Origin: Oscillospiraceae bacterium
GTDB taxonomy: Bacteria > Bacillota > Clostridia > Oscillospirales > Oscillospiraceae
Length of the DNA: 35,228 nucleotides
Assembly: GCA_017516925.1 (NCBI GenBank)
Contig: JAFXAQ010000044.1
Location: 1-35,228, forward strand
Direction: 5' to 3'
Shown here: piece by piece, positions 1,189 through 29,211 of the stretch
How the letters are laid out: every line of letters starts with the position of its first letter
Position numbering within the stretch: position 1 is the first letter of the stretch
The notes under the pieces: model-generated
What the model saw: the letters and a program-made list of their open reading frames with translations, nothing else
Databases searched by the model: none
Told to the model about the DNA's origin: nothing
Made by a program: the position numbers and the translations under genes

Positions 1189-1424
1189 TCAGCGGTCAAG
1201 GAAGCGCCAAAGACAAGCAAACCGGACCTGTCGGCGTACAGATGGTACGTTAGGGTCCGGTTTGTGCAGTAAGTCAAAACACCTTGCGATAGCAAGCTGT
1301 TTTAGGGAACTGATTGCCACAACCAGTGTTGCGACGCTGGTTTCGCAATGACTGTTTCATTATGGCAGATTGCTTTTTCAATATCGTTGTGTTTTGACGG
1401 TTTGGGGGTTCCTTGACACGCTGA
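1189..1424 (+). repeat. Structured intergenic element, family 1, copy 1
   Basis: A 236 bp element that folds as follows. P1: TCAGCG plus GTCAAGGAA (1189-1203) pairs with TTCCTTGAC, a bulged A, then CGCTGA (1409-1424), extended inward by CCAAA (1207-1211)/TTTGG (1401-1405). P2: CAAACCGGACC (1218-1228) pairs with GGTCCGGTTTG (1254-1264); its tip carries CGTAC/GTACG. P4: GTCAAAACAC (1273-1282) pairs with GTGTTTTGAC (1389-1398). P3: CTTGC-GATA-GCAAG (1283-1296). The variable loop 1297-1388 holds a palindromic insert (1312-1352). Copies 2 and 3 share the fold with compensatory changes. It contains no convincing ORF. It lies between convergent genes, and its right end overlaps the hairpin at 1423-1448 by two bases. 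Confidence 0.85.
1312..1352. repeat. REP-like palindrome nested in element copy 1
   Basis: An imperfect palindrome running from GATTGCCACAACCAG to CTGGTTTCGCAATGAC. Its ends (GATTGCCAC and CGCAATGAC) match the type of short dispersed repeat found in many bacterial genomes with ends like GTCATTGCGAGG and GGCAATC. A related but different palindrome occupies the same loop in copy 3 (29040-29081). Confidence 0.55.
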
Positions 1425-1448
1425 AGCCGGAGGGTAACCTCCGGCTTC
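1423..1448 (-). terminator. Terminator-like hairpin after the histidine kinase gene
   Basis: A 10 bp perfect stem, GAAGCCGGAG/CTCCGGCTTC, with a 6-base loop lies 8 bases past the kinase stop. On the minus strand no T-run follows. The sequence passes straight into the end of repeat element 1, which may have separated the hairpin from its U-tract. Confidence 0.5.
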
Positions 1449-1456
1449 AATGTCTA

Positions 1457-2662
1457 TTACAGGCACGGCAGCTGAACAAAGAAGCAATTTCCTGTTGGAT
1501 TGCTTTCTGCCCATATTTTCCCCTTATGATTTTCTGTAAGGCTTTTGGCAATAGACAAGCCCAAGCCAAAGCTTCCGTCACCGGTACGGGCAGTATCCAG
1601 TCTGGAAAATCGTCCGAAAATCGTTTTCAGCTTTTCCTGCGGGATCGGGTTTCCCGGACTGGCTACCGACAAAAGGCAACTGCCTCTCCCCTGCCGTTGC
1701 AATTTCACCAACACAAGACCCGGGGCCGCATATTTTGCTGCATTGTCCAGCAGCACGCTCAGTATCTGCGTCAGGTGCTGAGGGCTGCCTGTTAAAAGAA
1801 TTTGTGCTTCAATCTGACTTTCCAGCACCAGATTTTTTTCAAAAAATACCGGTTCAAAGGGTAGTAGCGTCTCCTGAACAAGCTGACTGAAATCCAGCTG
1901 GGTAAAGGTGTTCCGGGTCTGTCCGTTGTCTGCCCGGGTCAGCTCCAGCAATCCTTCCACCAAAGCCCGCATTCGATGAGACATTGTCAAGATATTTTGC
2001 TGAAACTGCTTTCTGTCTGCCTCCGGACAATCCGGGCTGTCCAAAAGCTCTGCGTTGCTCATAATCACCGTCAGCGGCGTTTTCAACTCATGGGAAGCAT
2101 CCGAAACAAATTGGGTCTGCTGCTTCCAGGCCTTGTCTACCGGCTTTACCGCCCAGTGCGCCAAGAACAGGCTAATTCCAAAAAAGGCTGCCAGGCTGAG
2201 CAGTCCCATCAGGGTGCAGGCACGAACCAATGCTGTCAGCGTCGCCTGCTGGCTGGATATGTCCACAAACAAAATAGTCTGGCTGGCAACATCCGAAACC
2301 ACTATATAACGCAAATTGTAGGTTTCCAGCAATCCGGTGTTTCTTTGCTGGGCATACACCCGCTGGACAAGCTCCCGGATAAAGGTTTCGTCGGTAATAT
2401 CATAGTAGCTATAGCCGCTGGTAATCATATTGCCGTGAACAGTTACCTGAACGGAGAAATACGGAAGCTGCGCCTCCCGGTCAGGTTCCTGAAAGCTGCT
2501 GGGACGTCGGGTATTCTGGGACAAGCGTTCCAGAAGTGCCTCTGTCTGGGTGTCCAAATTCATCTTTGTGAAATGATACACCGTGGCAAAAATCGCCAGC
2601 AGCATCGCCAAAACAATGCACATATTCACAAGCACAAATTTCAGGCGTAATTTTCTTATCAC
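1457..2662 (-). CDS. Sensor histidine kinase
   Basis: 401 residues, transmembrane sensor kinase. Order: TM1 (about 8-30), an extracytoplasmic sensor region (about 31-145), TM2 (about 148-168), then the dimerisation/phosphoacceptor helix with H-box FVSDASHELKTPL (His191). The ATPase domain follows, with N-box LLDNAAKYA and G-box GDGSFGLGLSIAKSL. It starts at GTG with GGAGG seven bases upstream; the GTGA start overlaps the TGA of the response regulator by four bases, so the two are translationally coupled. The signal sensed is unknown. The sensor region is too small and unremarkable to name a ligand. Confidence 0.93.
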   Translation of the reverse strand: MIRKLRLKFVLVNMCIVLAMLLAIFATVYHFTKMNLDTQTEALLERLSQNTRRPSSFQEPDREAQLPYFSVQVTVHGNMITSGYSYYDITDETFIRELVQRVYAQQRNTGLLETYNLRYIVVSDVASQTILFVDISSQQATLTALVRACTLMGLLSLAAFFGISLFLAHWAVKPVDKAWKQQTQFVSDASHELKTPLTVIMSNAELLDSPDCPEADRKQFQQNILTMSHRMRALVEGLLELTRADNGQTRNTFTQLDFSQLVQETLLPFEPVFFEKNLVLESQIEAQILLTGSPQHLTQILSVLLDNAAKYAAPGLVLVKLQRQGRGSCLLSVASPGNPIPQEKLKTIFGRFSRLDTARTGDGSFGLGLSIAKSLTENHKGKIWAESNPTGNCFFVQLPCL

Positions 2663-3330
2663 TGTGAAACCTCCAAATGATATCCCAGTCGCCGGATTGC
2701 CACAATTCGTACATCCGAGCCGATAGCCTGCAGCTTCTTCCGCAAAAAGCCCACATAGACCTCCACGTGATTCTCCACCGCATTGGAATCATAGCCCCAA
2801 ATCCGTGCCAATATCACTTCTTTCGACAGATTTTGTCCCTTGGATTGCATCAAAAAGCGCATAACGTCAAATTCTCTGGCAGAAAGACGGACGGATTTAT
2901 CGCCGCACACCAATGCGCCGGAGGCTAAATCCAGCGCAGTATTGCCAAAGGTAAGCTCATCCACCTGATTGCCCTGCCGGCGAAGCAGCGCATTGATACA
3001 GGCCAGCAGCTCCCGGGAATCAAAGGGCTTTGTCAGGTAATAGTCCGCACCGGCATTGAGCCCCTCAATTCTGTCCTCCAGACCGGATTTTGCCGTCAGC
3101 ATTAAAATCGGCGTGGCGCAGCGCTTGGCACGGACCTGCCGTGCCACCTGATAACCGTCCATTTTTGGCATCATAACGTCCAATATCAAAAGGTCATAAA
3201 TTCCCAGCTCGGCATATTCTGCCCCGGCCTCTCCGTCGTAGACAACCTCCACCGTAAAGCCCTTCCGTTCCAGCATTGCCTTGAGCGAATCTGCCAGCAA
3301 TTTTTCGTCTTCCACAATCAAAATTTTCAT
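2659..3330 (-). CDS. OmpR/PhoB-family response regulator
   Basis: 223 residues. The receiver domain (1-115) has the acidic pocket EDE near residue 8, phosphoacceptor Asp51 (LILDVMMPKMDG) and Lys101 (YLTKPF). A winged-helix DNA-binding domain follows (about 125-220; REFDVMRFL, NHVEVYVGFLRKKL, RRLGYHLE). The start is at MKILIVEDEK, with AGGAGG seven bases upstream at 3338-3343, rather than the upstream in-frame start. It is the first gene of the two-gene operon with the downstream kinase, with its own sigma-A-type promoter at 3355-3382. Targets are not evident. Confidence 0.94.
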   Translation of the reverse strand: MKILIVEDEKLLADSLKAMLERKGFTVEVVYDGEAGAEYAELGIYDLLILDVMMPKMDGYQVARQVRAKRCATPILMLTAKSGLEDRIEGLNAGADYYLTKPFDSRELLACINALLRRQGNQVDELTFGNTALDLASGALVCGDKSVRLSAREFDVMRFLMQSKGQNLSKEVILARIWGYDSNAVENHVEVYVGFLRKKLQAIGSDVRIVAIRRLGYHLEVSQ

Positions 3331-3354
3331 TGTATAACCTCCTGACATATTTCT

Positions 3355-3382
3355 ATTATAATACATTGCCAGGCTGAATCAA
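3355..3382 (-). promoter_or_regulatory. Promoter of the two-component operon
   Basis: -35 TTGATT (3377-3382) and -10 TATAAT (3355-3360), 16-base spacer, read on the minus strand. It lies 25 bases upstream of the response-regulator start. Confidence 0.7.
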
Positions 3383-3401
3383 GACTGAAATACACAAAAC
3401 A

Positions 3402-3429
3402 GAAAGGGTCAGCAAAAACTGACCCTTTC
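3402..3429 (-). terminator. Intrinsic terminator of the serA operon
   Basis: 11 bp stem GAAAGGGTCAG/CTGACCCTTTC with a 6-base A-rich loop. On the minus strand it is followed by a U-rich stretch (TGTTTTGTGTATTT), 10 bases past the serA stop. Confidence 0.8.
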
Positions 3430-3438
3430 CACAATTGC

Positions 3439-4602
3439 TTATCGAATCACACGGGCACGGAAAACGCCTTCCAGCGCCTCCAGCTCTTTGACAACCTCTG
3501 CAGGTGTGGGCTCATCCAAATCCAACATCGTACAGGCATACTCCCCTTTGCTTCGGTTCAGCATATCGGAGATGTTGATATTGTGGCTTGCCACCACGGT
3601 TGTGAAACGGCTGATGGTGTTGGGAATATTCTTATGCAGCACCATAATTCGACCAGGCTTGGTACAGATGCCCATATCCATAGCCGGGAAATTTACAGAA
3701 TTCTTGATATTACCGTTTTCCAGATAATCCATTACCTGACGCACTGCCATCTTTGCGCAGTTATCCTCAGATTCTTCTGTAGATGCGCCCAAGTGGGGAA
3801 TGGCAACAACACCCTGCATACCGGCGGTTCTGTCATTGGGGAAGTCTGTAATATAGCGCTTAACCTTACCGGATGCCAGCGCCTGCTCTATGGCATCGTC
3901 ATCCACCAGCTTATCCCGGGCGAAGTTCAAAAGAATTACGCCATCTTTCATCATTGCCAGAGTTTCTGCGTTAATCATATGCTTGGTATCATCCAAAAGG
4001 GGTACGTGCAGAGAAATAATATCGCACTTTTCGTAAATTTCTTCCCGGGTCTTCACAGGCACAATGTTGCTGTCCAAATGCCATGCAGCGCTGATGGAAA
4101 TGTAGGGGTCACAGCCGTAGACCTCCATACCCAGGGCAATGGCAGTGTTTGCCAGAATACCGCCAATGGCGCCCAAGCCGATAACACCCAGCTTCTTACC
4201 CATCAACTCTGTTCCGGCGAACTGGGACTTACCCTTTTCCACTTTCTTTGCCACGTCGCCTTCGTCCTTAATGGACTTTACCCACTCAACGCCGCCTATG
4301 ACATCACGGCTGCCCAGAAGCATACCGCAAATTGCCATTTCCTTCACACCGTTGGCGTTGGCGCCGGGAGTGTTAAACACCACAATACCCTGCTGGGCGC
4401 ATTTTTCCAGCGGAATATTATTCACACCCGCGCCAGCCCGGGCAACTGCCAGCAGATTGTCCGGCAAGTCCATTTCATGCATAGCAGCGCTGCGAACCAA
4501 AATGGCATCCGCCTGCGCAATATCCTCGGTGGTCTTATAGTCCTCTGTCCAAAGGGCAGTGCCCACCTTGGAAATCTTATTCAAATAATGTACCTGATAC
4601 AT
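3439..4602 (-). CDS. serA: D-3-phosphoglycerate dehydrogenase
   Basis: 387 residues. It catalyses NAD-dependent oxidation of 3-phosphoglycerate to 3-phosphohydroxypyruvate, the first step of serine synthesis in the cytoplasm. The 2-hydroxyacid dehydrogenase catalytic domain flanks a Rossmann domain (GLGAIGGILANTA near 145). Conserved segments include RAGAGVNNIP, the LLNFARD loop and the IPHLGASTEES catalytic His region. A C-terminal ACT domain (about 315-387; GRIMVLHKNIPNTISRF) suggests serine feedback. I chose ATG 4602 because AAAGGA then has an 8-base spacer; an ATG nine bases upstream overlaps the apgM-like stop but has no spacer. Downstream gene of a coupled two-gene operon. Confidence 0.93.
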   Translation of the reverse strand: MYQVHYLNKISKVGTALWTEDYKTTEDIAQADAILVRSAAMHEMDLPDNLLAVARAGAGVNNIPLEKCAQQGIVVFNTPGANANGVKEMAICGMLLGSRDVIGGVEWVKSIKDEGDVAKKVEKGKSQFAGTELMGKKLGVIGLGAIGGILANTAIALGMEVYGCDPYISISAAWHLDSNIVPVKTREEIYEKCDIISLHVPLLDDTKHMINAETLAMMKDGVILLNFARDKLVDDDAIEQALASGKVKRYITDFPNDRTAGMQGVVAIPHLGASTEESEDNCAKMAVRQVMDYLENGNIKNSVNFPAMDMGICTKPGRIMVLHKNIPNTISRFTTVVASHNINISDMLNRSKGEYACTMLDLDEPTPAEVVKELEALEGVFRARVIR

Positions 4603-4607
4603 AGCTC

Positions 4608-5810
4608 TCATCCTTTCATAAATAAACGGTCAATTAAGCGATAGCCCTCCGGCTGGAAAATACCGGTGGCTTCAGCCTCTTTTTCGTTATACTGTGCAAC
4701 TTTCTTTCTTTGACAGGTGCTGTCATAGAGAATATAGGGTACCGGGTCCCCAGTGTGGGTGCGGCAGCGAATGGGCGTGGGGTGGTCCGGAAGTATCAAA
4801 AGCCGATAAGGCTCCAAGGATGCATCCATCGCCGCCTTGACTGGGGCAATCACCCGGCTGTCCAGCGCTTCAATCGCCTTGATTTTATTTTCTATGCTGC
4901 CCTGATGTCCCATTTCATCCGGGGCTTCCACGTGGATATAGGCAAAGTCACAGCCGTCCTGCAGCACTGCCTGGATCGCCGCCTGGGCTTTCCCCTCATA
5001 ATTGGTATGCAAGCCGCCGTTGGCGCCGGGGACATTCACAACCTGCATTCCGGCGCCGGTAGCAATCCCCTTTAATAAATCCACAGCAGAAATCATTGCG
5101 CCGGTTTTACCTGTCTTTTTTTGAAAATTCTCCAGACTGGGTTTGGTGCCTGCGCCCCAGAACCAAAGGCAATTGGCTTTATTCTTGCCCTGGGCAGCGC
5201 GCTGCAGGTTCAGCGGGTGGTTATTCAGGATTTCATAGCTTTTCTCCATCATTTGCAAAAAAGCCGGATGCTGCGGCAAATAGGGGGCAATTTTCTGTCC
5301 CAAATGGTCATGGGGCTGCGCCATCTCCAGGACTTTTCCCTTTTTCCACACCAAAATGTGGCGGTAGCTGGTGCCGGTATAAAACTGAAATTCCGGAGCA
5401 GTCAGCTCTTTGCGCAGGTCGTTTAGCAAAATATCCGCATCCTCGGTGGAAATCTCGCCGGAGCTATGGTCCACAATAGTCTTCTCAGCAAAAGGTGCAT
5501 CCTCCGTCAGGGTCACCAAGTTTGCCCGAAAAATCACATCGTCGGCTGCCATTTGCACACCCACGCTCAGCGCCTCCAAGGGAGAACGTCCGGAATAGTT
5601 TTCCAAAGGGTTATAGCCCAATACCGCCAAGTTTGCCACGTCGCTGCCCGGCTTCATAGACTCAGGGACTGTTTTTACCAGTCCCATCTCCCCCTTTCCG
5701 GCCAGTTCATCCATACAGGGTGTTTGGGCATATTGCAGGGGCGTTTGCCCACCCAGCTGCGCCAAAGGCTCGTCAGCCATTCCGTCGCCTAAAATCACAA
5801 AATACTTCAT
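4608..5810 (-). CDS. ApgM-type cofactor-independent phosphoglycerate mutase / proposed homoserine kinase
   Basis: 400 residues, alkaline-phosphatase superfamily. The start MKYFVILGDGMADEP carries the first metal-binding Asp; PGSDVANLAVLGYNP holds the Ser nucleophile region; HVEAPDEMGHQG and LPDHPTP supply the second set of metal ligands. The archaeal-type ApgM family interconverts 2- and 3-phosphoglycerate, but a clostridial branch is annotated as a proposed homoserine kinase because it clusters with threonine genes. Here the partner is serA, which consumes 3-phosphoglycerate, favouring a phosphoglycerate or serine role. The start is set by GGAGG at 5818-5822; an upstream in-frame extension has no ribosome site. 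Its stop overlaps the serA start region. Confidence 0.85.
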   Translation of the reverse strand: MKYFVILGDGMADEPLAQLGGQTPLQYAQTPCMDELAGKGEMGLVKTVPESMKPGSDVANLAVLGYNPLENYSGRSPLEALSVGVQMAADDVIFRANLVTLTEDAPFAEKTIVDHSSGEISTEDADILLNDLRKELTAPEFQFYTGTSYRHILVWKKGKVLEMAQPHDHLGQKIAPYLPQHPAFLQMMEKSYEILNNHPLNLQRAAQGKNKANCLWFWGAGTKPSLENFQKKTGKTGAMISAVDLLKGIATGAGMQVVNVPGANGGLHTNYEGKAQAAIQAVLQDGCDFAYIHVEAPDEMGHQGSIENKIKAIEALDSRVIAPVKAAMDASLEPYRLLILPDHPTPIRCRTHTGDPVPYILYDSTCQRKKVAQYNEKEAEATGIFQPEGYRLIDRLFMKG

Positions 5811-6073
5811 AAGGGAACCTCCGTGTTCGCCTTTTCCCGTCCATATAGGGTAAACATTTGTATTTATCATATAGTAGCACTTCTTGCAAGAAAATACAAT
5901 ATGAAAATTTGGATGATTTTTTAGTTTTTTTACCGGAATTTTCGTCAATAATGTATGATACAGGTCCCAAAAACATATGCTACATCATATTCACAAACTA
6001 TTCACGGGATTTTCAGGGAGTTTTCAGTCTCTGTTCGTATAATGGTGACAGAAACAAAGAAAGGATGATGCAT

Positions 6074-7405
6074 ATGTATCAAGATGATGAGAAGAATTTC
6101 CCCTGGACATATAAGCCGGAACAACCCTCTGCCCAACAGGAGCAGCCCTTCCCGCAAGAAGCGCCGCTGCCTCAGTATGAGCCTGCTCCGGTACAGGAAG
6201 AACAAACATCAAAAAAGAAACGCTCCTCCGCCTCTACCGGCAAAATCGTTGCTCTGGCGCTTTGCTGCTCTCTGCTGGGCGGCATTCTGGGCAGTGTCGG
6301 CGGCGCTCTGGCAATGAAAACCGCAGCGCCCCAAAACAACACCGTGGTCTTGGAGGGTCAGCGGGAAAATACCGTTTTGGAAATCCACAAAATCGATACC
6401 TCCAAGCTGATGACACCTGCCGAGGTTTATGCTGCCAACGTGAACTCCACTGTTGGCATCACCACCACCGTCACCACAAACTTCTGGGGCTTCCAGTCCA
6501 ACTCCGCCGCCTCCGGTTCCGGATTTATCATTTCTAAGGACGGCTATATTCTCACCAACCAGCACGTAATTGAAGATTCCTCCTCTATCACCGTATCCTT
6601 CTACGACGGCTCCAGCAAGGAGGCGCAGCTGGTGGGCTACGATGCCAGCAATGATATTGCCGTGTTAAAGGTTGAGGCGCAGGATTTAAGTCCTGTGGTT
6701 CTGGGCAACTCCGAAAATTTGAATGTTGGCGATTCCGTGGTTGCCATCGGCAACCCCTTGGGAGAACTGACCTTTTCCCTGACCGCCGGTGCCGTCAGCG
6801 CCACAGAACGGGAAATCACCACCTCCAACGGTGTCACAATGAACCTGATGCAGACAGACTGCGCCATCAACTCCGGAAACTCCGGCGGTGCGCTGTTCAA
6901 TCTGTACGGTGAGGTGGTAGGCATCACCAATGCCAAGTACTCCTCCTCCGGCACAGATACCTCCATTGACAATATTGGGTTTGCTATTCCTGTAAACCGT
7001 ATTCGCAGCATTGTGGAAAGCATCATCGAAAAAGGCTATATTGCAAAGCCCTATCTTGGTGTGTCTCTCACCGATGTCAGCGCAGAAACCCAGAGCTATG
7101 GCTTGCCTCAGGGCGCTTCTGTTAAGGAGGTTTCGGAAAACTCCCCTGCCGCCAACGCAGGACTGCAGGTCAACGATATCATCACCCACGTGGACGGTCT
7201 GGCAATTACCGGTTCTTCCGACGTTGTGAAAATTGTGGGAGAATGTGAGGTCGGTCAGGTCCTGAAGCTGACCGTTTACCGGATGGGCATTACTATGGAT
7301 GTGGAAATCACCGTAGGAGAGCAAATTCAAAACGCCACACCACAGGAAACCACACCCCAACATCAATATCCCAACTTCCCCTTTGGCGGAAACGGAATGC
7401 GTTAA
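6074..7405 (+). CDS. HtrA/DegP-like membrane serine protease with PDZ domain
   Basis: 443 residues. Surface quality-control protease. A Pro/Gln-rich cytoplasmic tail (1-46) precedes one TM segment (about 57-81), then a trypsin-like domain with His164 (TNQHV), Asp194 (SNDIAVL) and Ser270 (INSGNSGG), and a C-terminal PDZ domain (about 340-420; PYLGVSL, SPAANAGLQVNDII). The triad is intact. ATG 6074 is preferred because AAGG ends nine bases before it; ATGs at 6065 and 6068 are too close. A TATAAT at 6038-6043 is a likely -10, but no good -35 precedes it, so an activator or alternative sigma factor is possible. Confidence 0.93.
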   Translation: MYQDDEKNFPWTYKPEQPSAQQEQPFPQEAPLPQYEPAPVQEEQTSKKKRSSASTGKIVALALCCSLLGGILGSVGGALAMKTAAPQNNTVVLEGQRENTVLEIHKIDTSKLMTPAEVYAANVNSTVGITTTVTTNFWGFQSNSAASGSGFIISKDGYILTNQHVIEDSSSITVSFYDGSSKEAQLVGYDASNDIAVLKVEAQDLSPVVLGNSENLNVGDSVVAIGNPLGELTFSLTAGAVSATEREITTSNGVTMNLMQTDCAINSGNSGGALFNLYGEVVGITNAKYSSSGTDTSIDNIGFAIPVNRIRSIVESIIEKGYIAKPYLGVSLTDVSAETQSYGLPQGASVKEVSENSPAANAGLQVNDIITHVDGLAITGSSDVVKIVGECEVGQVLKLTVYRMGITMDVEITVGEQIQNATPQETTPQHQYPNFPFGGNGMR

Positions 7406-7448
7406 CAAATCATAACCACCGACAGTGTGCCAGTGGTTTTCTTACCAT

Positions 7449-7479
7449 AAAAGCCGAAGTGCAGTGCACTTCGGCTTTA
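7449..7479. terminator. Bidirectional terminator between htrA-like and metK
   Basis: A long near-perfect stem, AAAGCCGAAGTGCA paired with TGCACTTCGGCTTT, between convergent genes. It can serve both. Confidence 0.75.
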
Positions 7480-7483
7480 TGGT

Positions 7484-8632: not shown

Positions 8633-8662
8633 AATAATCCTTTCACGCAATCAAAAAAATAC

Positions 8663-8688: not shown

Positions 8689-8795
8689 TTCTATCAGATC
8701 CTCATCTTTCGTTGCCGCCGGATTTGGCACCACGCAAATTTCGCAGGTTGCCGGGTTTCATCGGGCCGTTCCCTCCACCACTCTTGATAAGGCTA
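8689..8795 (-). promoter_or_regulatory. SAM-I (S-box) riboswitch controlling metK
   Basis: On the minus strand the aptamer begins CTTATCAAGAG (8781-8791), then GGTGGAGGGA, CGGCCC and GATGAAACCCGGCAACC. This is the canonical S-box core with its kink-turn and SAM-binding segments. P1 closes with CTGATAG near 8691-8697, and the terminator follows directly. Known mechanism: SAM binding stabilises P1 and lets the terminator form, shutting off metK. Confidence 0.97.
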
Positions 8796-8812
8796 GTATG
8801 CAGTTCGTGTCT

Positions 8813-8840: not shown

Positions 8841-8881
8841 CTACTTTTTTAATTTTTCCGAAAAAGTTCATATTTGCACCA

Positions 8882-15252: not shown

Positions 15253-15276
15253 AAAAGCTCCCTGAAGGGAGCTTTT
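15253..15276 (-). terminator. Terminator downstream of acyltransferase and element copy 2
   Basis: 10 bp stem AAAAGCTCCC/GGGAGCTTTT. On the minus strand T-rich sequence follows (TTTTTTGTTT). It lies 6 bases from the left end of repeat copy 2, so the element sits between the acyltransferase stop and this terminator. Confidence 0.85.
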
Positions 15277-15282: not shown

Positions 15283-15514
15283 TCAGAGGTCAAGAAAGCC
15301 CCAAAGATAAGCAAACGGTCGGCGTGGGCGTACACAGGTACGTTAGTCCGACCGTTTGCGCAGTAAGTCAAAACAACTTGCGCAAGCAAGATTTTTACTC
15401 CTCATCCGTCAAAAATCAGAGATTTTTGCCACCTTCTCCCCAGGGAGAAGGCTTTATTCTGTCCACTATCATTTATCCGTGTTTTGACGGTTTGGGGATT
15501 TATTGACACTCTGA
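15283..15514 (+). repeat. Structured intergenic element, family 1, copy 2
   Basis: A 232 bp element with the same fold as copy 1 but different stem sequence. P1: TCAGAG...TCAAGAAA pairs with TTTATTGA, C, bulged A, CTCTGA (15509-15514), extended by CCCCAAA (15299-15305)/TTTGGGG (15491-15497). P2: GCAAACGGTCGG pairs with CCGACCGTTTGC around GGCGTAC-ACAG-GTACGTTAG. P3: 15377-15390. P4: GTCAAAACA (15367-15375) pairs with TGTTTTGAC (15480-15488). The loop holds two unrelated small hairpins. The right end overlaps the last codons and stop of the acyltransferase gene. Confidence 0.85.
15391..15479. repeat. Variable loop of element copy 2 with two small hairpins
   Basis: It contains CAAAAATC-AGA-GATTTTTG and CCTTCTCCC-CA-GGGAGAAGG, both palindromic. 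Neither resembles the loop inserts of copies 1 and 3. Confidence 0.5.
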
Positions 15515-16696
15515 GCCGGTGTAGATACCGGAATAGCCGTAGATATAACCGCCGTTTAAGTAATGCGCCTTGATTTTTCGCTGCAGAGAGGTATCCTCCG
15601 GCAAATCACGCAAATCTGCCGGGCGCCGGGTAAAGGCAAAGCTGAACACAGCTGTGCCGCCATCTTTTGTGGGATAGCGGGTAAAGCTTTGCTGGAAGGA
15701 AGTGATTTTGGAATTCTCCCCCAGCAGTTCAGAAAGAGTGGGGTCCAGCAGCCAGGATGCGCAGAAAATCAGCCGTCCTTTACACTCCGGATAGCGCTGC
15801 GCCACAATTTCCAAGGCGCTTTTACAGGCCTTTGTCATATTCTCCCGGGAGATATCCGCCCCCTTGGGAATATGCATATTCAAGCAATCATCCCCGGGTC
15901 TTGCAACACATTCCCACTTGGTTTTGGGAAAGGTCTCCCGCTGAGAGGACACAACACAGTCATAGGTAGGATAACCATAGTAGTTTTCTTCATCCTCTTC
16001 AAATAGGACCTGGAAGGTTTCCGGGCATTCCTCAAAGCCGGCAGAGCCCAGTCTATGCTTGCCGTCATCGCAGAACACAGCGTTCAGCACAAAGGGGATT
16101 ATTTCTCCGGTCTCCTTATTTTTCAGCCAACAAGCACCGAGGGGCATTGTGAATTTTTCGAATTGTAAGGTGTGGGTTTTGAAAAGAATTGCCTTTGTAT
16201 AGTGGATAAACCAATTGAAATACGTCTGGTTTACACCGGGCCGACCGGTTTGATTCCGGACAATACTGATGCCGCCCTGATAGCCCCGCAGCAAATCTTC
16301 CAATTCGGCTTCAGGAAAGCCCCGGTCACGGTACTGGGCAATGGATACGGGAATTTGCGGGAGCAGCATAAACAGCGGCAAAAAGTCCATGGTTTCTGTG
16401 CCGTCTGTGGGGGGCACGGGAATGCTCCGGGCATCCGCAAAATCTGCCTGCAGCGCATATTGGGAAGATACTCTGACCCAAGCGCTGAGGGTTTCATTTT
16501 CGTTGATTGCTTCTCCTGCCCGCATAATCGGGTCAATAAACTGGCCAAACAGATTGTGTTCCCGCTGCAGCGCTTCCACAACCGCCAGATCGCAGGCAAC
16601 CGCCCCATTATCCCGGTAGGTTTCCGCAAAAGCCAGCATTTTCTCCGGAAGCTTGGCGGTGATGCCCACAGAAGCTGCCAATTCCATAAGGTTCAT
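15500..16696 (-). CDS. Acyltransferase, NAT_N/GNAT_C type
   Basis: 398 residues, cytoplasmic. The N-terminal helical part and C-terminal GNAT-like part (about 165-290) match the two-domain acyltransferase family common in Clostridia; FNWFIHYTKAILFKTHTLQFEKFTM is the conserved junction. After the GNAT fold there is a further region of about 110 residues (KTKWECVARPGDDCLNMHIPKG and beyond). Substrate unknown. Starts at ATG with GGAGGG upstream. The final codons (Glu-Cys-Gln-stop) lie inside the end of repeat element copy 2, so the C-terminus was probably rewritten by its insertion. Confidence 0.8.
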   Translation of the reverse strand: MNLMELAASVGITAKLPEKMLAFAETYRDNGAVACDLAVVEALQREHNLFGQFIDPIMRAGEAINENETLSAWVRVSSQYALQADFADARSIPVPPTDGTETMDFLPLFMLLPQIPVSIAQYRDRGFPEAELEDLLRGYQGGISIVRNQTGRPGVNQTYFNWFIHYTKAILFKTHTLQFEKFTMPLGACWLKNKETGEIIPFVLNAVFCDDGKHRLGSAGFEECPETFQVLFEEDEENYYGYPTYDCVVSSQRETFPKTKWECVARPGDDCLNMHIPKGADISRENMTKACKSALEIVAQRYPECKGRLIFCASWLLDPTLSELLGENSKITSFQQSFTRYPTKDGGTAVFSFAFTRRPADLRDLPEDTSLQRKIKAHYLNGGYIYGYSGIYTGSECQ

Positions 16697-23622: not shown

Positions 23623-23623
23623 A

Positions 23624-24463
23624 TTAAATACCACTTTTTGTCAGGAAGCCGCCGTCAATGGGGATGGTCACACCGGTGACAAAGGCGGAAGCTTCATCGT
23701 TTAACAGCCAATCCACACAGCCCAGTAAATCCTCGGCAACACCAAAGCGCTTCATAGAGGTGTGGTTAATGACGCTCTCGCCCCGGGGGGTCAAGCCCTC
23801 CTCCACGGTGCCCAGGAAGGTACGGGAACGCTCATTGACAAAGAAGCCGGGAGCAATGGCATTGACACGGATATTGGCAGGTGCCAGATAGTTACCCAGC
23901 CATTTGGTGTAGTTCTCAATGGCTGCCTTACTCATCGCATAGGCAGGGACACGTGTCAGGGGACAATAGGTGTTCATAGAAGCAAAATTGAGAATGACGC
24001 CGCCGCCGTTTCTGACCATCTGCTCGCCAAAGACTTGACAGCAGGCTACCGTGCCCACGGTGTTGATTTTCAGGACGCTGGTGTAAACGTCCATATCCAA
24101 ATCGAAAAAGCCCCGGACACCCTCGGGCTTGTCCTCAGACAGTTCCACAGGGTCATACTCCGTCAGGGTGGTCATTGCGTTCATCTGGTTGCCACCTGCG
24201 CCGTTAATCAGGAAGTTGCAGTTGCCCCACTGGGCTTTTATTTCGTCAGCAATCTTCCGCATAGCGGCTTTGTCGGTCACATCACCGGTTTTTATCACAT
24301 AGGTTCCGCCGAATTCTGCAATCTTATCAGCAGTTTTCTGGAGCTTTTCAGCGCTTCTTCCCACCAAAACAACTTTTGCGCCTTTTTTTGCCAAATGAAT
24401 GGCAATACAGGAGCACAGGGTGCCGCCGGCACCGGTAACCACCGCAATTTTATTTTCAAACAT
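23624..24463 (-). CDS. uxuB: SDR oxidoreductase, D-mannonate oxidoreductase (fructuronate reductase) type
   Basis: 279 residues. Rossmann-fold short-chain dehydrogenase: TGAGGTL (cofactor loop; TGxxGxx with Cys-Ser after it), NGAGGN, catalytic Ser (NFASM) and YAMSK (Tyr-x-x-x-Lys), ending GVTIPIDGGF. Position between uxuA and uxaC matches the SDR-type UxuB of Firmicutes, which reduces fructuronate to mannonate. Starts at ATG with AGGAGA. The assignment leans on context, since the SDR fold alone does not define substrate. Confidence 0.85.
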   Translation of the reverse strand: MFENKIAVVTGAGGTLCSCIAIHLAKKGAKVVLVGRSAEKLQKTADKIAEFGGTYVIKTGDVTDKAAMRKIADEIKAQWGNCNFLINGAGGNQMNAMTTLTEYDPVELSEDKPEGVRGFFDLDMDVYTSVLKINTVGTVACCQVFGEQMVRNGGGVILNFASMNTYCPLTRVPAYAMSKAAIENYTKWLGNYLAPANIRVNAIAPGFFVNERSRTFLGTVEEGLTPRGESVINHTSMKRFGVAEDLLGCVDWLLNDEASAFVTGVTIPIDGGFLTKSGI

Positions 24464-24475
24464 TTTGTTCTCTCC

Positions 24476-25384
24476 TTATAATGCAGATTGGGTATCGTTG
24501 GGATCGCCGTTGATAGCCAGGTCATATTCCACAGACCAGTCCAGTCCGCGGTAGTCCGCTGCACGGTCATCCTTTTCGATAAAGTCCAACAAAAGGTCCA
24601 GCATTTCCTTGCTCCAGGTGTTTTTATCAATCTGGGCTGTGGTGAATTTGTTCTGGGAAATCATCTCAAAGCCGAACATATCCTTCACCTGGGTTTTGGC
24701 TGCGCCGCCTACCACCTCTTCCACCAGATGGGCAGGGATGAATAGCACACCGCCACCGGCGCCGAATACCACGTCACCGGGCAAGCAGATGGCTTTACCG
24801 ATTCTGGTGGGGGTGTTATAGCCCATCATAATGAATTCCCGGATGGGTGTGGGGTCAATGCCCCGGTAGTAAACCTGAGTGTCCTCCACTTTTTTCATCT
24901 GCTCGGTGTCACGGATGCCACCCCAGATCACTGCGCCGCCGTTTTCGTTCTTGGTTTTGTTTTTCAGGGCGGTTGTCAGGTTACCACCCAGGTATGTGCC
25001 CTTGTAAATCTTGTCATACATATCAATCACAGGCACATCGTATTCCATCAGGTTGTCAATGACCCACTGGTTGTAGGTGCCGGTTCTGCCCTCTTCTCTG
25101 CCGATTTCCTTAACGGTTTCGTCAAAATCGGGGCGGTAGGGGCAATAGGTGGCGGTAACAGCTCTGCCGATGAGCTTCCGTCCGTCATCGTGGAGGGTGT
25201 GCAGACGACCCTCGAACTGGCTCTCATAGCCCTTAACGAAAATGGGCTTCCAGACCTCCTCCAGCGTCAGATTTTTCAGCGCTTTTAAGTACTTTTCGTC
25301 CACCTTGGGTCTGCCGTCAGGCAATCTTTCGCCCTTCCACTGGGATGTGAGTTGAATAACATCTTCTTTTACGTTGAAATGCAT
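24476..25384 (-). CDS. RraA-family protein in the uronate operon
   Basis: 302 residues, longer than typical RraA (about 160-230), with an N-terminal extension (about 70). The RraA core is visible: WGGIRDTEQM (the GGIRD Arg-Asp pair that binds substrate and metal in HMG/CHA aldolases) and PGDVVFGAGGGVLFIP (usually with an Asp where this has Gly). RraA-fold members include pyruvate-releasing aldolases and the RNase E inhibitor, which is unlikely here. One base separates its start from the UxaC stop. A role in KDG cleavage or another uronate step is inference; function unproven. Confidence 0.82.
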   Translation of the reverse strand: MHFNVKEDVIQLTSQWKGERLPDGRPKVDEKYLKALKNLTLEEVWKPIFVKGYESQFEGRLHTLHDDGRKLIGRAVTATYCPYRPDFDETVKEIGREEGRTGTYNQWVIDNLMEYDVPVIDMYDKIYKGTYLGGNLTTALKNKTKNENGGAVIWGGIRDTEQMKKVEDTQVYYRGIDPTPIREFIMMGYNTPTRIGKAICLPGDVVFGAGGGVLFIPAHLVEEVVGGAAKTQVKDMFGFEMISQNKFTTAQIDKNTWSKEMLDLLLDFIEKDDRAADYRGLDWSVEYDLAINGDPNDTQSAL

Positions 25385-25385
25385 A

Positions 25386-26747
25386 TTACTTGCCCTCCTG
25401 AATCAATTCTTTTGCATTTTGATAGCATATTTTTTCCACAATGGGTTTCCAAACAGAAAAGTCGGCCGGAAGCTCCCCGGCAGCCACTTTTTCTCCAATC
25501 CACATACACAGTACACGGCGGAAATAATCGTGCCGGGAGAAGGACAGCAGGCTTCGGGAATCCGTTGTCATACCCACAAAGGTAGACAGCACACTGAAGG
25601 AGGCGAATTCATTTAGCATCTGCTTTATTCCCTGCATATGGTCACACCACCACCAGGCAGGTCCCTGGGTAACCAGCGCCGGAACACCGTCACGGGCATA
25701 GGAGCCGCTTAAGATGGAAATGGGCCCGTTATCTGCCGGGTTCAGGGTAAAGACAATGGTTTTGGGCAAGCCCTCTGTCTGCTCCAAATCATCCAACAGC
25801 GCCGTCAGGCTTTGAACATCCAGTGTATTTCCAATACCGGCAAAGCCACCGGCAGGACCCACCAGATTACGAAGCCGGGTGCTGGTGTAGCGCTGGGCGC
25901 CAATATGCAGCTGCATTGTCATATGGTACTGACAATAAAGCTTTCCAAGGATACGCAGCATTTCACTGCGCAGCGCCTGGGTGTCGGCAGGAGATAAGGT
26001 TTCTCCGGACAGGACTGTCTGCAAGCGGCATTGGTTTTTTCCGTCATCCCGGATATACACAAAGCCGTTATCCAAAGCGTGGTCAGAAAATTTGCAGCCC
26101 GCTTTTGCAAACCGGGAAATACGTGTTGCAAGGGCTTCTGTCAGGGTTTGCAAATCCACAATCGAAACATTGCTCACTTGGGACAGCTCCTGCAGGAAGG
26201 TTTTATCCGGAAGCAGAATATCGTCTGCCCGCAAAGAGGGCGCCAAGCCGGGTATGTCTTCAAAAGCGGAAACATCCTCCCGGATACCGGCGCAGGGCGC
26301 AGCATATTCCACATTGAATTTTTCCAGGTAGCTACCGGCAGAAAACGCAGGGGTTGCCAAAAGCTTTTCTGCCGTATCCCAGATTTCCCGGGCAGTCTCC
26401 GGGGCGGGAACAAGGTCAATGCCGAATACATTTTGCAGCTCCGCCAAAGACCAGTCATACACCGGTGTGCCGGCAAGACTTCCAAAAACCTCGCACCACT
26501 TTTGGAACTTCTCATACGGCGCTTTGTCTCCGGTTATGTATGCCTCCTCTACACCGCAAATTCGCATAAGGCGGTGCTTATAGGGGTCTGTCGCCAGCCA
26601 GATTTCATAGAGATTTTGAAACTGCCGGTTGTTCCGGATATCCGCTACGCACAAATGGTTATGATAATCGATGATTGGTAAGTCCTTTGCCACCTGATGA
26701 TAAAGCTGCTGCGCCAAGGGTGTGGTCAGCAGGTAGTTCTCGTTCAT
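25386..26747 (-). CDS. uxaC: Glucuronate isomerase
   Basis: 453 residues. It isomerises D-glucuronate to fructuronate (also galacturonate to tagaturonate). Amidohydrolase-fold enzyme: IIDYHNHL metal site near residue 28, DPYKHRLMRICGVEE, and C-terminal FVGMTTDSRSLLSFSRHDYFRRVL. First gene of a minus-strand operon (uxaC, RraA, SDR, uxuA, GH39) with near-zero gaps. Starts at ATG with GAGGTG upstream; promoter at 26769-26797, divergent from the AraC regulator. Confidence 0.94.
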   Translation of the reverse strand: MNENYLLTTPLAQQLYHQVAKDLPIIDYHNHLCVADIRNNRQFQNLYEIWLATDPYKHRLMRICGVEEAYITGDKAPYEKFQKWCEVFGSLAGTPVYDWSLAELQNVFGIDLVPAPETAREIWDTAEKLLATPAFSAGSYLEKFNVEYAAPCAGIREDVSAFEDIPGLAPSLRADDILLPDKTFLQELSQVSNVSIVDLQTLTEALATRISRFAKAGCKFSDHALDNGFVYIRDDGKNQCRLQTVLSGETLSPADTQALRSEMLRILGKLYCQYHMTMQLHIGAQRYTSTRLRNLVGPAGGFAGIGNTLDVQSLTALLDDLEQTEGLPKTIVFTLNPADNGPISILSGSYARDGVPALVTQGPAWWWCDHMQGIKQMLNEFASFSVLSTFVGMTTDSRSLLSFSRHDYFRRVLCMWIGEKVAAGELPADFSVWKPIVEKICYQNAKELIQEGK

Positions 26748-26768
26748 AGTTCTCTCACCTCATTGATA

Positions 26769-26797
26769 AGTATAAATCTCCCACCGTTTCAACGCAA
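26769..26797 (-). promoter_or_regulatory. Promoter of the uronate operon
   Basis: -35 TTGCGT (26792-26797) and -10 TATACT (26769-26774), 17-base spacer on the minus strand. Just upstream, GATAATC...GATTAT (about 26808-26833) is an imperfect inverted repeat and a candidate AraC-type or repressor site. Confidence 0.6.
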
Positions 26798-26851
26798 TAG
26801 AGATTTGGATAATCGTTTATAAAAAAAGATTATTTTTGCTGCTCGCAGAAG

Positions 26852-26880
26852 TTGAATTGCAGAATATTATTTGATATAAT
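26852..26880 (+). promoter_or_regulatory. Promoter of the AraC-family gene
   Basis: -35 TTGAAT (26852-26857) and -10 TATAAT (26875-26880), 17-base spacer. It shares the 154-base divergent region with the uronate operon. Confidence 0.68.
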
Positions 26881-26901
26881 ATGCAATAAGGTGGTGAAAG
26901 A

Positions 26902-27666
26902 ATGGATTATACGCTGAATTTTGAAGTTCACGATTTTGCTTTTTTTGTAACAAAATCCCACGTCAAGGGAGACAAATATGCCATCGGGTCCAAGATGCTT
27001 TTCCGGCTCGTTTGTGTTTTGGAGGGGGAAGCCACTTTTATATTTGAAAACCACAAAGCTACCGTAAGCGCCGGGGATTTATGCTTTCTGTTCCCCGGAA
27101 ATGACTACACTGTGGAGGTTTCCAAGGAAAAGGATTTTAAATTCATAACGGTTACCTTCTCTGCAGACTGCAACCTGTCCGGCGCAAAGCCCCTGCTTTC
27201 CACGTCCCTTCCGGAAATGCGGGACAGCTTTGAGGATGCCTATCGCGCCTATATGCACCAGGAAGCCACCTGGCGGCTGAAGCTGATGTCCCTTGTCTAT
27301 TGCGCCTTTGAAAGGATCATCGCCGCCAACACAGAAAGCTACAGGAAAGAAGACAGAATCCAAAGCGCCGTACGATACATCAAAACCAACTATACGGACA
27401 AAATCACCCTGGAGGAACTGGCTGAGTGCGCAGGCTGCAGTGTGCCGCATTTTAAGTATTTGTTCCACAAGCAATTCGGTATCTCCCCTATCCGGTATCT
27501 GAACAAGCTAAGGATGGAGCACGCTATCAATCTGATAAAATCCGATATGTATTCCGTTACGGAAATTGCCGAATTGTGCGGCTTTCACAACGTGTATTAT
27601 TTCTCCAATGCTTTTAAAAAACACACAGGTCTCTCCCCCACCGCCTATATGCAGACCCTGAAATAG
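26902..27666 (+). CDS. AraC-family transcriptional regulator
   Basis: 254 residues. An N-terminal cupin-like sensor domain (about 10-130; ENHKATVSAGDLCFLFPGND) and a C-terminal pair of helix-turn-helix motifs (about 155-254; ITLEELAECAGCSVPHFKYL, then VTEIAELCGFHNVYYFSNAF and GLSPTAYMQTL). It is divergent from uxaC, so it most likely controls the uronate operon in response to a uronate or xylan-derived sugar. The effector is not shown by the sequence. Confidence 0.93.
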   Translation: MDYTLNFEVHDFAFFVTKSHVKGDKYAIGSKMLFRLVCVLEGEATFIFENHKATVSAGDLCFLFPGNDYTVEVSKEKDFKFITVTFSADCNLSGAKPLLSTSLPEMRDSFEDAYRAYMHQEATWRLKLMSLVYCAFERIIAANTESYRKEDRIQSAVRYIKTNYTDKITLEELAECAGCSVPHFKYLFHKQFGISPIRYLNKLRMEHAINLIKSDMYSVTEIAELCGFHNVYYFSNAFKKHTGLSPTAYMQTLK

Positions 27667-27668
27667 TA

Positions 27669-27692
27669 AACCCCCCGGCTAAGCCGGGGGTT
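27669..27692. terminator. Bidirectional terminator between araC-type and membrane gene
   Basis: Stem AACCCCC-GGC/GCC-GGGGGTT (about 10 bp, short loop) between convergent genes; followed by AATTTTAC on the plus strand. Confidence 0.75.
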
Positions 27693-27700
27693 AATTTTAC

Positions 27701-28024
27701 TTACATACAAAATGTGAAGATAGATATTATGAAAAGTAAAGCAAACACAGCCATTGCAGCAATTGTGATATATCGTAGAATTTTCTGCTGTAACAATTTC
27801 TTGCTAATCCAAGACAGGATGAAACCCAAAACAGAAACAGCAAACAAGCAAATTCCATATCCCCAACCAATACCAAAATAATCAATTCCACTTGCACTTG
27901 GGTCATTGGCAAGTTCATTCAAAATACGGTTGATATCAGCAATACTGTAGACACAGAAAATTATTGAAACAATGAGAACGAGGCACGATGCAACCAACAA
28001 TATCATAGATAGTATTCTTTTCAT
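27701..28024 (-). CDS. Small membrane protein of unknown function
   Basis: 107 residues. Three predicted TM segments (about 5-27, 50-70, 82-106), with a short acidic loop containing NELANDPSASG after the first. No recognised domain. Start MKRILSM with GAGGGAGC upstream. Lies in a minus-strand run of small genes below a GNAT gene; AT-rich compared with the neighbouring sugar genes, which may mark recent acquisition. Confidence 0.65.
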   Translation of the reverse strand: MKRILSMILLVASCLVLIVSIIFCVYSIADINRILNELANDPSASGIDYFGIGWGYGICLFAVSVLGFILSWISKKLLQQKILRYITIAAMAVFALLFIISIFTFCM

Positions 28025-28058
28025 ATTTATGCGCTCCCTCGTCAAATCGGAATTTGTT

Positions 28059-28562
28059 TTACTGTAGCTTTAAGCACATATAATCAAAAGCTATTTCTTC
28101 ATCACCAATCTTGAAGAAAACAGGGTGCATACCAATTTTCTTAAAGCCAAACTTTTCGTATAAATGTATTGCCGGTAAATTATCACTACGCACCTGCAGG
28201 TCAATCACTTCAAATGCATTTTCTTTCGCAAAGTTGATTATTTCCAGCAATAATTGACTTCCGATACCTCTGTTCCAGTATTCTTTTAAAACAGATACGC
28301 CTAAATCTCCCCGGTGCTTCATTCGACGGGGCAAGCGGCTCAAGCTGGCATCCCCAACAATTTTTCCGTTTTCTTTTGCAAGAAGCATAATTGCATCGCA
28401 AGAGTTTTCCATTTGGCGAATGTATGCCGCTTCCGATTCAGTTGTAAAAGGCAATCCCTCTGCACCGAATGTCAAATTATCTGTTTCTGCGCCTATTTGT
28501 TTTAAATATCGCAATATCTCAGCTGCGTCTGCACATGTTGCCTTTTCAATTGTAATGCTCAT
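28059..28562 (-). CDS. GNAT-family N-acetyltransferase
   Basis: 167 residues, standard single GNAT domain. Acetyl-CoA-binding motif A is visible as SVLKEYWNRGIGSQLLLEI (R/Q-x-x-G-x-G/A pattern), followed by LQVRSDNLPAIHLYEKFGFKKIG. Closest in look to RimL/ribosomal-protein or small-molecule acetyltransferases; substrate unknown. Starts at ATG with GAGGTG upstream. Confidence 0.9.
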   Translation of the reverse strand: MSITIEKATCADAAEILRYLKQIGAETDNLTFGAEGLPFTTESEAAYIRQMENSCDAIMLLAKENGKIVGDASLSRLPRRMKHRGDLGVSVLKEYWNRGIGSQLLLEIINFAKENAFEVIDLQVRSDNLPAIHLYEKFGFKKIGMHPVFFKIGDEEIAFDYMCLKLQ

Positions 28563-28589
28563 ATGGTAGTCACCTCGTCAAATTCTCAT

Positions 28590-28868
28590 TCACTTATCAC
28601 TTTTAACAAGCAAAGAAACACTATTGATGATTATGGCTGCAATCGTTAGAAACCATAAAGCTTTGGATAAGGTAGGCATAACATCCAATAGCGCACTGTT
28701 ATCTCCGCTGATAGCCCAATGATTCGCCATACTGTAAAAAGCGCACAGGGTCAGCGCCGTAAATGACAGGCTGATAAAACGAAAAACCTTTGCTTCACGA
28801 TGCCGAATAGTCCATATTACATTCAAGATTGCTGCAATAATTGCGATAATCCCAAATAACAACCACAT
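28590..28868 (-). CDS. Small three-helix membrane protein
   Basis: 92 residues. Three TM segments (about 2-20, 29-48, 67-86), the first joined to a basic turn (RHREAK). No known family identified. Starts at ATG with GGAGG upstream. Low-complexity hydrophobic content makes function unpredictable. Confidence 0.6.
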   Translation of the reverse strand: MWLLFGIIAIIAAILNVIWTIRHREAKVFRFISLSFTALTLCAFYSMANHWAISGDNSALLDVMPTLSKALWFLTIAAIIINSVSLLVKSDK

Positions 28869-28942
28869 AATTTACGCGCCTCCAAATTCCTATTTTCTAA
28901 CAGTTTCATATATTCTATCACATAGCAGGAAGATATACAAGA

Positions 28943-28967
28943 ACAAACCCGGCATCGCCGGGTTTGT
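28943..28967 (-). terminator. Terminator-like hairpin at the right end of element copy 3
   Basis: 11 bp perfect stem ACAAACCCGGC/GCCGGGTTTGT with a 3-base loop. It directly abuts the element end at 28968. On the minus strand it is followed by TCTTGTATATC. Nearly identical to the hairpin at 29245-29272 on the other side of the element. Confidence 0.65.
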
Positions 28968-29211
28968 GCAGAGTGTCAAAGAACCCCCAAATCGCCAAAA
29001 CACAATTCGTATTATAGTCATAATCTTCCATAATTGGAACGTCATTGCGAGGACCCTGAGCGAAGTCGAAGGGGACGTGACAATCAGTTCTTCTTTGAAA
29101 AGCCTTGCTATCGCAAGGTGTTTTGACTTACTGCACAAACCGGACCCTAACGTACCATCTGTACGCCGACGGGTCCGGTTTGCTTGTCTTTGGCGCTTCT
29201 TTGAGCTCTGC
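28968..29211 (-). repeat. Structured intergenic element, family 1, copy 3 (inverted)
   Basis: 244 bp, minus strand. P1: GCAGAG (29206-29211) then TCAAAGAA pairs with TTCTTTGA then CTCTGC (28968-28973). P2 is identical in stem sequence to copy 1, with the GGCGTACAGATGGTACGTTAG tip. P3: 29104-29117. P4: GTCAAAACAC (29118-29127) pairs with GTGTTTTGGC (28994-29003, one G-U). The loop 29004-29103 carries the repeat at 29040-29081. The P1 ends differ from copies 1 and 2 but remain paired. Confidence 0.87.
29040..29081. repeat. REP-like palindrome nested in element copy 3
   Basis: Starts CGTCATTGCGAGGACCC and ends GGGGACGTGACAATC, with an internal GAGCGAAGTC palindrome. The end sequences are of the GTCATTGCGAGG/GGCAATC type seen as dispersed repeats in many bacteria; copy 1 has a relative at 1312-1352. 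Confidence 0.6.

What the first reader, a model, noticed from the sequence alone, without database searches (positions are those of the whole stretch)
1189..29211. Three copies of a 232-244 bp intergenic element with a shared, covarying fold
Copies at 1189-1424, 15283-15514 and 28968-29211 (minus) share a terminal stem with one bulged base, a long hairpin with a GGCGTAC...GGTACGTTAG tip, a CTTGC/GCAAG hairpin and a GTCAAAACA/TGTTTTGAC inner stem. Terminal arms read TCAGCG/CGCTGA, TCAGAG/CTCTGA and GCAGAG/CTCTGC: different but always paired. The long hairpin is CAAACCGGACC/GGTCCGGTTTG in copies 1 and 3 but CAAACGGTCGG/CCGACCGTTTG in copy 2, with five compensatory pair changes. Single-stranded parts are conserved instead. 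This points to selection on structure: an RNA, or a mobile element recognised as a folded strand. I cannot match it to a known family.
Basis: seen in the sequence. Interest (0 to 1): 0.87.

Follow-up and report, generated by a model that had tools for sequence, protein, structure and literature searches.

The report
Folded mobile element duplicating terminator hairpins
The three repeats are copies of a small mobile DNA element of gut bacteria that folds into a conserved shape, sits at the hairpin stop signals after genes and usually has a copy of the whole local hairpin on each side; the enzyme that moves it was not found.

Summary
The three copies lie where stated, and the fold and compensatory changes are real. 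A model of the left half gives 31 matches in this 1.65-Mb MAG, and matches in 23 of 101 genomes of its genus and 28 of 295 of its order. Nothing reached an Rfam gathering score. In 33 copies the structure pairs in 95.9% of 1747 cells; 25 of 53 pairs change on both sides.

The larger finding lies around the copies. The complete form is T-H-E-T: E is the reported element, H a roughly 34-nt palindrome built from the same end sequence, T the local terminator-like hairpin, repeated directly on both sides. Of 99 copies with both flanks, 73 show it (control 1 of 1980). The duplicated length follows the hairpin (14-41 bp; r = 0.94). In other genera 31 of 46 show it (control 0 of 920). Window copy 3 is complete; copies 1 and 2 lack H and one T.

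My reading: a MITE-like, non-autonomous element that inserts at hairpins with a structure-defined target duplication. Its enzyme was not found. My paper searches found no description of such a duplication.

The parts
1189..1424 (+). Copy 1 of element E (no H), between the stop codon of the ORF at 787-1182 and the 3' end of the histidine-kinase-like ORF at 1457-2662 (minus)
1217..1265 (+). P2, the long hairpin of copy 1; its tip GGCGTAC...GGTACGTTAG (about 1233-1251) is the most conserved part of the family
1273..1398 (+). P3 of copy 1 (GTCAAAACAC at 1273-1282 with GTGTTTTGAC at 1389-1398), enclosing the CTTGC/GCAAG hairpin and a variable stretch
1424..1448 (+). Single T beside copy 1, hairpin AAGCCGGAGG/CCTCCGGCTT; no second copy found on the left
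15253..15276 (+). Single T beside copy 2, hairpin AAAAGCTCCC/GGGAGCTTTT; no second copy found on the right
15283..15514 (+). Copy 2 of E (no H); its right end supplies the last codons and the stop of the ORF at 15500-16696 (minus, GNAT_C domain)
28943..28967 (-). T copy on the 3' side of copy 3
28968..29211 (-). Copy 3 of E, in the complete form T-H-E-T
29212..29243 (-). H, palindrome CAGCCTGTCAAAAA...TTTTTGACAGACTG of copy 3
29245..29272 (-). T copy on the 5' side of copy 3; same stem, with three more bases near the loop than the other T

Best explanation
The three sequences are copies of a non-autonomous, MITE-like mobile element. The complete unit is H-E: a short palindrome H and the 220-245-nt folded element E, whose outer arms all carry versions of one end sequence (CAGNNTGTCAAA). 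It inserts, in either orientation, at terminator-like hairpins after genes. Insertion leaves a complete direct copy of the target hairpin on each side, so the target duplication is as long as the hairpin and not of fixed length. Inferred mechanism: an enzyme acting in trans recognises the folded plus strand of the element (perhaps by the conserved tip of P2) and the feet of the target hairpin; the two target strands are cut at opposite feet, as at a four-way junction of an extruded palindrome; the element is joined in, and filling the gaps copies the hairpin on both sides. Keeping a hairpin on each side would leave termination of the neighbouring genes intact. Shown by sequence: dispersal, the shared covarying fold, T-H-E-T, the link between duplication length and hairpin, and independent insertions. 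Inferred: the enzyme, the cuts, the recognition of the folded strand, and that T works as a terminator.
For: Dispersed copies: 51 blastn matches in the own genome, some of them parts of one copy; 31 model matches in G000 with 38 of 588 candidates scored, and 23 of 101 genus genomes. Fold; in 47 copies from other genera P1 of at least 8 bp is predicted in 44, P2 in 47, P3 in 29. T duplicated in 73 of 99 copies against 1 of 1980 mismatched flank pairs; 70 of 74 with H against 3 of 25 without H by the script's rule, and those 3 (L024, L082, L134) carry a divergent H by eye. Duplication 14-41 bp, median 28; hairpin span 17-39; r = 0.94 over 71; no gap to the element in 61 (left) and 62 (right) of 73. 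Other genera: 31 of 46, control 0 of 920. T lies within 80 nt of a gene stop in 61 of 72 against 297 of 1440 random positions, and has a T-rich 3' or A-rich 5' edge in 42 of 72 against 99 of 1440. Related sites carry different T and insertions in opposite orientation (L105/L158, L009/L177), and L135 has a single hairpin where L074 has T-H-E-T. G.T outnumbers A.C in the stems, 122 to 32 in 63 representatives; 23 pairs lean to G.T and 7 to A.C, p = 0.005.
Against: No enzyme was found: 150 of 180 left halves have the right half within 260 nt, 28 lie too near an end to tell, and 2 lack it (one truncated beside a metal-ATPase gene, one degenerate); none holds a gene. No empty site with the same T sequence was found: 67 rebuilt sites gave no spanning match, so that T predates the insertion rests on synteny. 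26 of 99 genus copies and 15 of 46 in other genera do not show the duplication. Window copies 1 and 2 lack it. The G.T excess is carried by few columns, and three P2 columns lean the other way, in part because of a gap in the alignment. Orientation relative to genes shows no clear bias, which does not support a made-to-order transcript.
Confidence: 0.68

Rival explanations
1. E is first of all a structured non-coding RNA made from read-through of the gene before it, ended by the second T, and moved by a retro-mechanism (group II-like or retron-like).
For: Multi-branched fold with compensatory changes and an invariant tip; more G.T than A.C in the stems of one strand; group IIC introns also insert next to terminator stem-loops (PMC7923331, passages).
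Against: No Rfam intron or other match at the gathering score. RVT_1 was found in 4 of 16 element-bearing and 7 of 11 element-free genomes. E points either way relative to neighbouring genes. The two T copies match each other at each locus and differ between loci, which a terminator copied from a donor transcript would not give.
Confidence: 0.13
2. The element is moved by a HUH (Y1) transposase of the REP-associated kind acting on single-stranded DNA; E is a large REP-like element.
For: Divergent Y1 proteins are in 11 of 16 element-bearing and 2 of 11 element-free genomes; the folded-strand asymmetry fits single-stranded DNA.
Against: Several of the Y1 genes are flanked by their own GTAG-tagged palindromes and none has E ends by the motif scan. 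Element-bearing G091, G001, G078, G072 and G069 lack a divergent Y1. The association was seen after trying several families, and the genomes are incomplete. Single-strand insertion of the IS200/IS605 type makes no target duplication (recalled).
Confidence: 0.12
3. An ordinary DDE insertion sequence with long target duplications (of the IS1202 or IS1182 kind) moves a MITE derived from it; the hairpin fit comes only from a preference for palindromic targets.
For: IS1202 members make 24-29-bp duplications (PMC10045372, passages). IS1272 (placed in the IS1182 family from memory) takes inverted repeats of 21-85 bp as target (PMC5678879, abstract and two sections).
Against: rve was found in 5 of 16 element-bearing and 4 of 11 element-free genomes, DDE_Tnp_1_6 in 2 of 16 and 4 of 11, DDE_Tnp_1 in 3 of 12 and 4 of 11; the own genome has none of the three. 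A fixed stagger does not explain lengths of 14-41 bp that follow the hairpin. IS1272 replaces its target and leaves no duplication.
Confidence: 0.15
4. Not mobile now: old repeats whose flanking hairpins were made alike by gene conversion or are part of the repeat.
For: Tandem copies and repeated T-H-E units exist; three T pairs match better in inverted form (L074, L132, L174).
Against: T differs between loci of one genome but agrees within a locus; related loci carry independent insertions in both orientations; copies of 95% identity exist in one genome.
Confidence: 0.05

Closest known systems
IS1272 (PMC5678879)
   Same: Targets are inverted repeats recognised by structure and not by sequence, two of its three new insertions lay just downstream of genes (abstract and two sections read).
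   Different: It carries a transposase; it replaces the target inverted repeat and leaves no duplication, whereas here the target hairpin is duplicated. The conserved inner fold has no counterpart in the passages read.
Group IIC introns (PMC7923331, passages)
   [quoted passage not shown] structured RNA.
   Different: Here there is no match to any Rfam intron family, no reverse transcriptase in most element-rich genomes tested, inverted-repeat ends and a duplicated hairpin.
bcr1 and other structured repeats of Bacillus cereus; prokaryotic MITEs (PMC3446304, PMC10969869, passages)
   Same: Short intergenic repeats without genes, MITE-like, with folding transcripts.
   Different: The passages read describe short direct repeats (7-9 bp for QMITE2) and no terminator hairpin as target or duplication.
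IS1202 group (PMC10045372, passages)
   Same: Long target duplications of 24-29 bp.
   Different: Fixed length classes, transposase present; no hairpin dependence in the passages read.
REP/BIME repeats with REP-associated Y1 transposases (PMC2817692, PMC3733652, listings only)
   Same: Palindromic, high-copy, intergenic, structure-based.
   Different: E is about ten times larger, has no GTAG foot beside its hairpins, and duplicates its target.

Membership tests
MITE (non-autonomous inverted-repeat element) | short, no transposase gene | tested here: met
   109 unique copies of 210-313 nt; no gene inside the copies that could be judged
MITE (non-autonomous inverted-repeat element) | terminal inverted repeats | tested here: met
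   P1 arms of E, and CAGNNTGTCAAA at the outer ends of H-E
MITE (non-autonomous inverted-repeat element) | target-site duplication | tested here: met
   73 of 99 copies, but of variable, hairpin-defined length
MITE (non-autonomous inverted-repeat element) | ends shared with an autonomous element | tested here: inconclusive
   no autonomous partner in the fetched loci; whole genomes were not read through
Group II intron | match to an intron covariance model (domains V and VI) | tested here: not met
   no match at the gathering score in the window or 12 loci from other genera
IS1182-family (IS1272-like) derivative | inverted repeat as target | tested here: met
IS1182-family (IS1272-like) derivative | target replaced, no duplication | tested here: not met
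   target duplicated in 73 of 99
IS1202-like derivative | direct repeats of 24-29 bp | tested here: not met
   14-41 bp, following the hairpin
REP / RAYT system | palindrome with GTAG foot, flanking the Y1 gene | tested here: not met
   Y1 genes lie beside other, GTAG-tagged palindromes; no E ends near them
Rfam RNA family | score above gathering cut-off | tested here: not met
   sub-threshold matches only; none at E up to 1 for copy 1
Retron | adjacent reverse transcriptase | tested here: not met
   own genome has no RVT_1 match

The most novel reading that the evidence does not exclude
A new class of mobile element, present in many families of one bacterial order, in which both the element and its target are recognised as folded strands: an unknown enzyme cuts at the feet of an extruded terminator hairpin and inserts the folded element, so that the target duplication is defined by structure. 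The element thereby keeps a terminator on each side and is nearly harmless.
Probability: 0.4. Interest if true: 0.92.

Novelty: new variant of a known kind. Interest (0 to 1): 0.82.

Why it matters
In the transposons that I know of, target duplications have a length set by the enzyme. Here the length is set by the target hairpin, which points to a cut guided by DNA structure and offers a direct test of whether terminators extrude as hairpins in living cells. The insertion keeps a terminator on both sides, which would explain how a repeat can reach dozens of copies between genes. The fold is a candidate new family for Rfam, spread over many families of an order of gut bacteria, with a tip that stays nearly unchanged while its stems are rewritten: a good handle for finding the protein that binds it.

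Tried and rejected
Autonomous copy: lone element ends were sought in the 193 loci held at that time; of 10 lone motif matches, the seven that were read gave no gene-bearing element. The longest apparent copy in the own genome (L018) is truncated and runs into a metal-ATPase gene.

Transposase families: DDE_Tnp_1 in 23 genomes, and Y1, rve, DDE_Tnp_1_6 and RVT_1 in 27 genomes. Only divergent Y1 proteins went with the element, and they have palindromes of their own. IS110, IS256, recombinases and other families were not tested.

Empty sites: the gene beside copy 3 was at most 48% identical in relatives, too far to be used. 67 rebuilt empty sites gave no spanning match among the loci. Three target pairs had both flanks in one relative; one of them (L074/L135) is an empty site with a single, different hairpin, one (L191/L184) holds the element on both sides, and one (L024/L188) holds an element copy near the gene.

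Considered and rejected: chance fold; intron; known RNA family; REP element. First assumption dropped: that E alone (copies 1 and 2) is the intact form. At least five copies without H keep half of H (L031, L127, L159, L165, L170), and L184 lost H by a deletion between direct repeats relative to L191.
Full report
What is in the window. Each folds better than all 200 shuffles. The structure is an outer stem P1 with one bulged base, a long hairpin P2 with a conserved tip, an inner stem P3, and a small CTTGC/GCAAG hairpin. The stretch inside P3 after that hairpin is variable.

A dispersed family. blastn with copy 1 gives 51 matches in the own genome G000, of which some are parts of one copy; many lie at contig ends, so the assembly breaks at them. 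Among 60 relatives, 12 of 60 listed genomes have matches, the own genome included, but those of G002, G005 and G011 hit only the variable middle; none of the 23 genomes outside the genus matched by blastn. A covariance model of the left 109 positions finds 23 of 101 genomes of the genus, with 31 matches in G000 (38 candidates scored), 29 in G079, 25 in G033 and 22 in G093. G069, of the window's genus, has a contig of the same length (10155) as one of Candidatus Faecousia excrementigallinarum, so I take the genus to be Faecousia or close to it (inference). At order level 28 of 295 genomes match, in 17 of 148 genera, several with many copies.

Structure is under selection. In 33 copies 95.9% of 1747 cells pair, 25 of 53 pairs have changes on both sides, 171 cells have such a change (shuffles 48 on average), and 0 of 500 shuffles reach any measure. 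P2 is the clearest: 11 of its 13 pairs change on both sides while the tip stays. In 47 copies from other genera with both ends found (47 of 60 fetched), P1 of at least 8 bp is predicted in 44, P2 in 47 and P3 in 29; their arms differ in sequence while the tip stays recognisable. In 63 representatives of 109 unique copies the stems hold 122 G.T and 32 A.C cells; 23 pairs lean to G.T and 7 to A.C, p = 0.005. This suggests that the plus strand is the folded one, as RNA or as single-stranded DNA. The signal is carried by few columns and some P2 columns oppose it.

The complete form is T-H-E-T. Reading outward from E, most copies have on the left a perfect or nearly perfect palindrome H, then a hairpin T; the same T follows directly on the right of E. 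H has the same end sequence as E (CAGNNTGTCAAA). T is different at each locus. Of 109 unique copies, 99 have both flanks: 73 have matching T by a local alignment score of at least 14, against 1 of 1980 mismatched pairs. By the script's rule 74 copies have H, and 70 of these have the duplication, against 3 of 25 without; those three have a divergent H by eye. The duplication is 14-41 bp long (median 28); in 71 of 73 it holds a hairpin of at least 6 bp spanning 17-39 bases, and the two lengths correlate at 0.94. There is no gap to the element in 61 of 73 on the left and 62 of 73 on the right. The two copies are identical in 40 of 73; where they differ it is mostly in the loop (34 of 278 loop positions, 12 of 1514 stem positions). 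In three cases the right copy matches better when inverted. In other genera 31 of 46 copies show the duplication, 0 of 920 controls, in 12 of 17 genomes. Window copy 3 is of this form; copies 1 and 2 have one T and no H.

T looks like a terminator. Of 72 hairpins, 61 lie within 80 nt of a gene stop (random positions 297 of 1440), 42 have a T-rich 3' or A-rich 5' edge (99 of 1440), and the mean stem G+C is 0.62. That they terminate transcription is inferred.

Mobility. Related genes in different species carry the element with different T and sometimes in opposite orientation (L105/L158; L009/L177), so insertions recur at the same genes. L135 has one hairpin where L074 has T-H-E-T. No empty site with the same T sequence was found. 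L184 differs from its 95%-identical relative L191 by loss of H through direct repeats; at least five copies without H keep half of it. So copies without H are best read as decayed. Orientation relative to neighbouring ORFs shows no clear bias (crude ORF choice, 20 of 109 too short).

Machinery. None found. Of 180 left halves in the fetched loci (some loci overlap), 150 have the right half within 260 nt, 28 are too near an end, 2 lack it; no inner gene was seen. In 27 genomes (16 with and 11 without the element): divergent Y1 in 11 and 2, rve in 5 and 4, DDE_Tnp_1_6 in 2 and 4, RVT_1 in 4 and 7; DDE_Tnp_1, in 23 genomes, in 3 of 12 and 4 of 11. The Y1 genes lie next to other palindromes, several with GTAG feet. 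The genomes are incomplete and the counts were read after the fact. Of two IMG/VR contigs with the pattern, one has T-H-E-T and one is diverged without H. Phage records gave no match; one plasmid record (Vescimonas fastidiosa) matched 21% of the query, the variable middle only.

How it may work. If the target hairpin is extruded, opposite cuts at its two feet and gap filling leave the whole hairpin on each side. This explains the variable length, the flush joints and the insertion in either orientation. It is inferred. The nearest precedent is IS1272, which takes inverted repeats as targets but replaces them without a duplication (PMC5678879, abstract and two sections).

Literature. Nine searches found no description of a target duplication equal to a terminator hairpin; two of them returned no paper at all. 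The library lacks most subscription journals and all bioRxiv preprints, so earlier description cannot be excluded.

Noticed in passing
window 1297-1388 and the same part of other copies: The variable middle of E often holds other dispersed palindromes (ATTGCCAC...CGCAATGAC; CCTTCTCC...GGAGAAGG). The first also occurs in genomes with no element E (G002, G005, G011) and 17 times in a Vescimonas fastidiosa record.
   Followed up: partly
L238-L259: Several genomes of the genus carry divergent Y1 transposases next to GTAG-tagged palindromes such as GTAGGGGACGGGTTTCCCGTCCC, a likely REP system of its own.
   Followed up: partly
window 15500-16696: The end of the element supplies the last codons and stop of a GNAT_C-domain ORF.
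   Followed up: yes
L077: The T at this site (AAATCGCACTCTAACGTAC...GTACGTTAGAGTGCGATTT) resembles the P2 hairpin of E itself.
   Followed up: no
L294: A diverged copy whose P1 arms are quite different (CCGGAGGCTG/CAGCCTCCGG) yet fully complementary.
   Followed up: no
L348, L349 (G281): P2-like hairpins with the conserved tip inside a different outer stem (GGGG.TGGCTCA / TGAGCCA.CCCC), possibly a separate branch of the family.
   Followed up: no
L029, L012 (G000:C10): One copy is interrupted at the P2 tip by about 285 bp of other sequence.
   Followed up: no
window 30757-30861: Tandem 15-bp repeat inside an ORF (TTCCTCTACCGGATT).
   Followed up: no
window 8699-8793 (minus): SAM riboswitch, 78.3 bits.
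   Followed up: no
window 2-787: ORF with a recombinase zinc-ribbon domain directly upstream of the small ORF before copy 1; perhaps the remnant of an integrated element.
   Followed up: no
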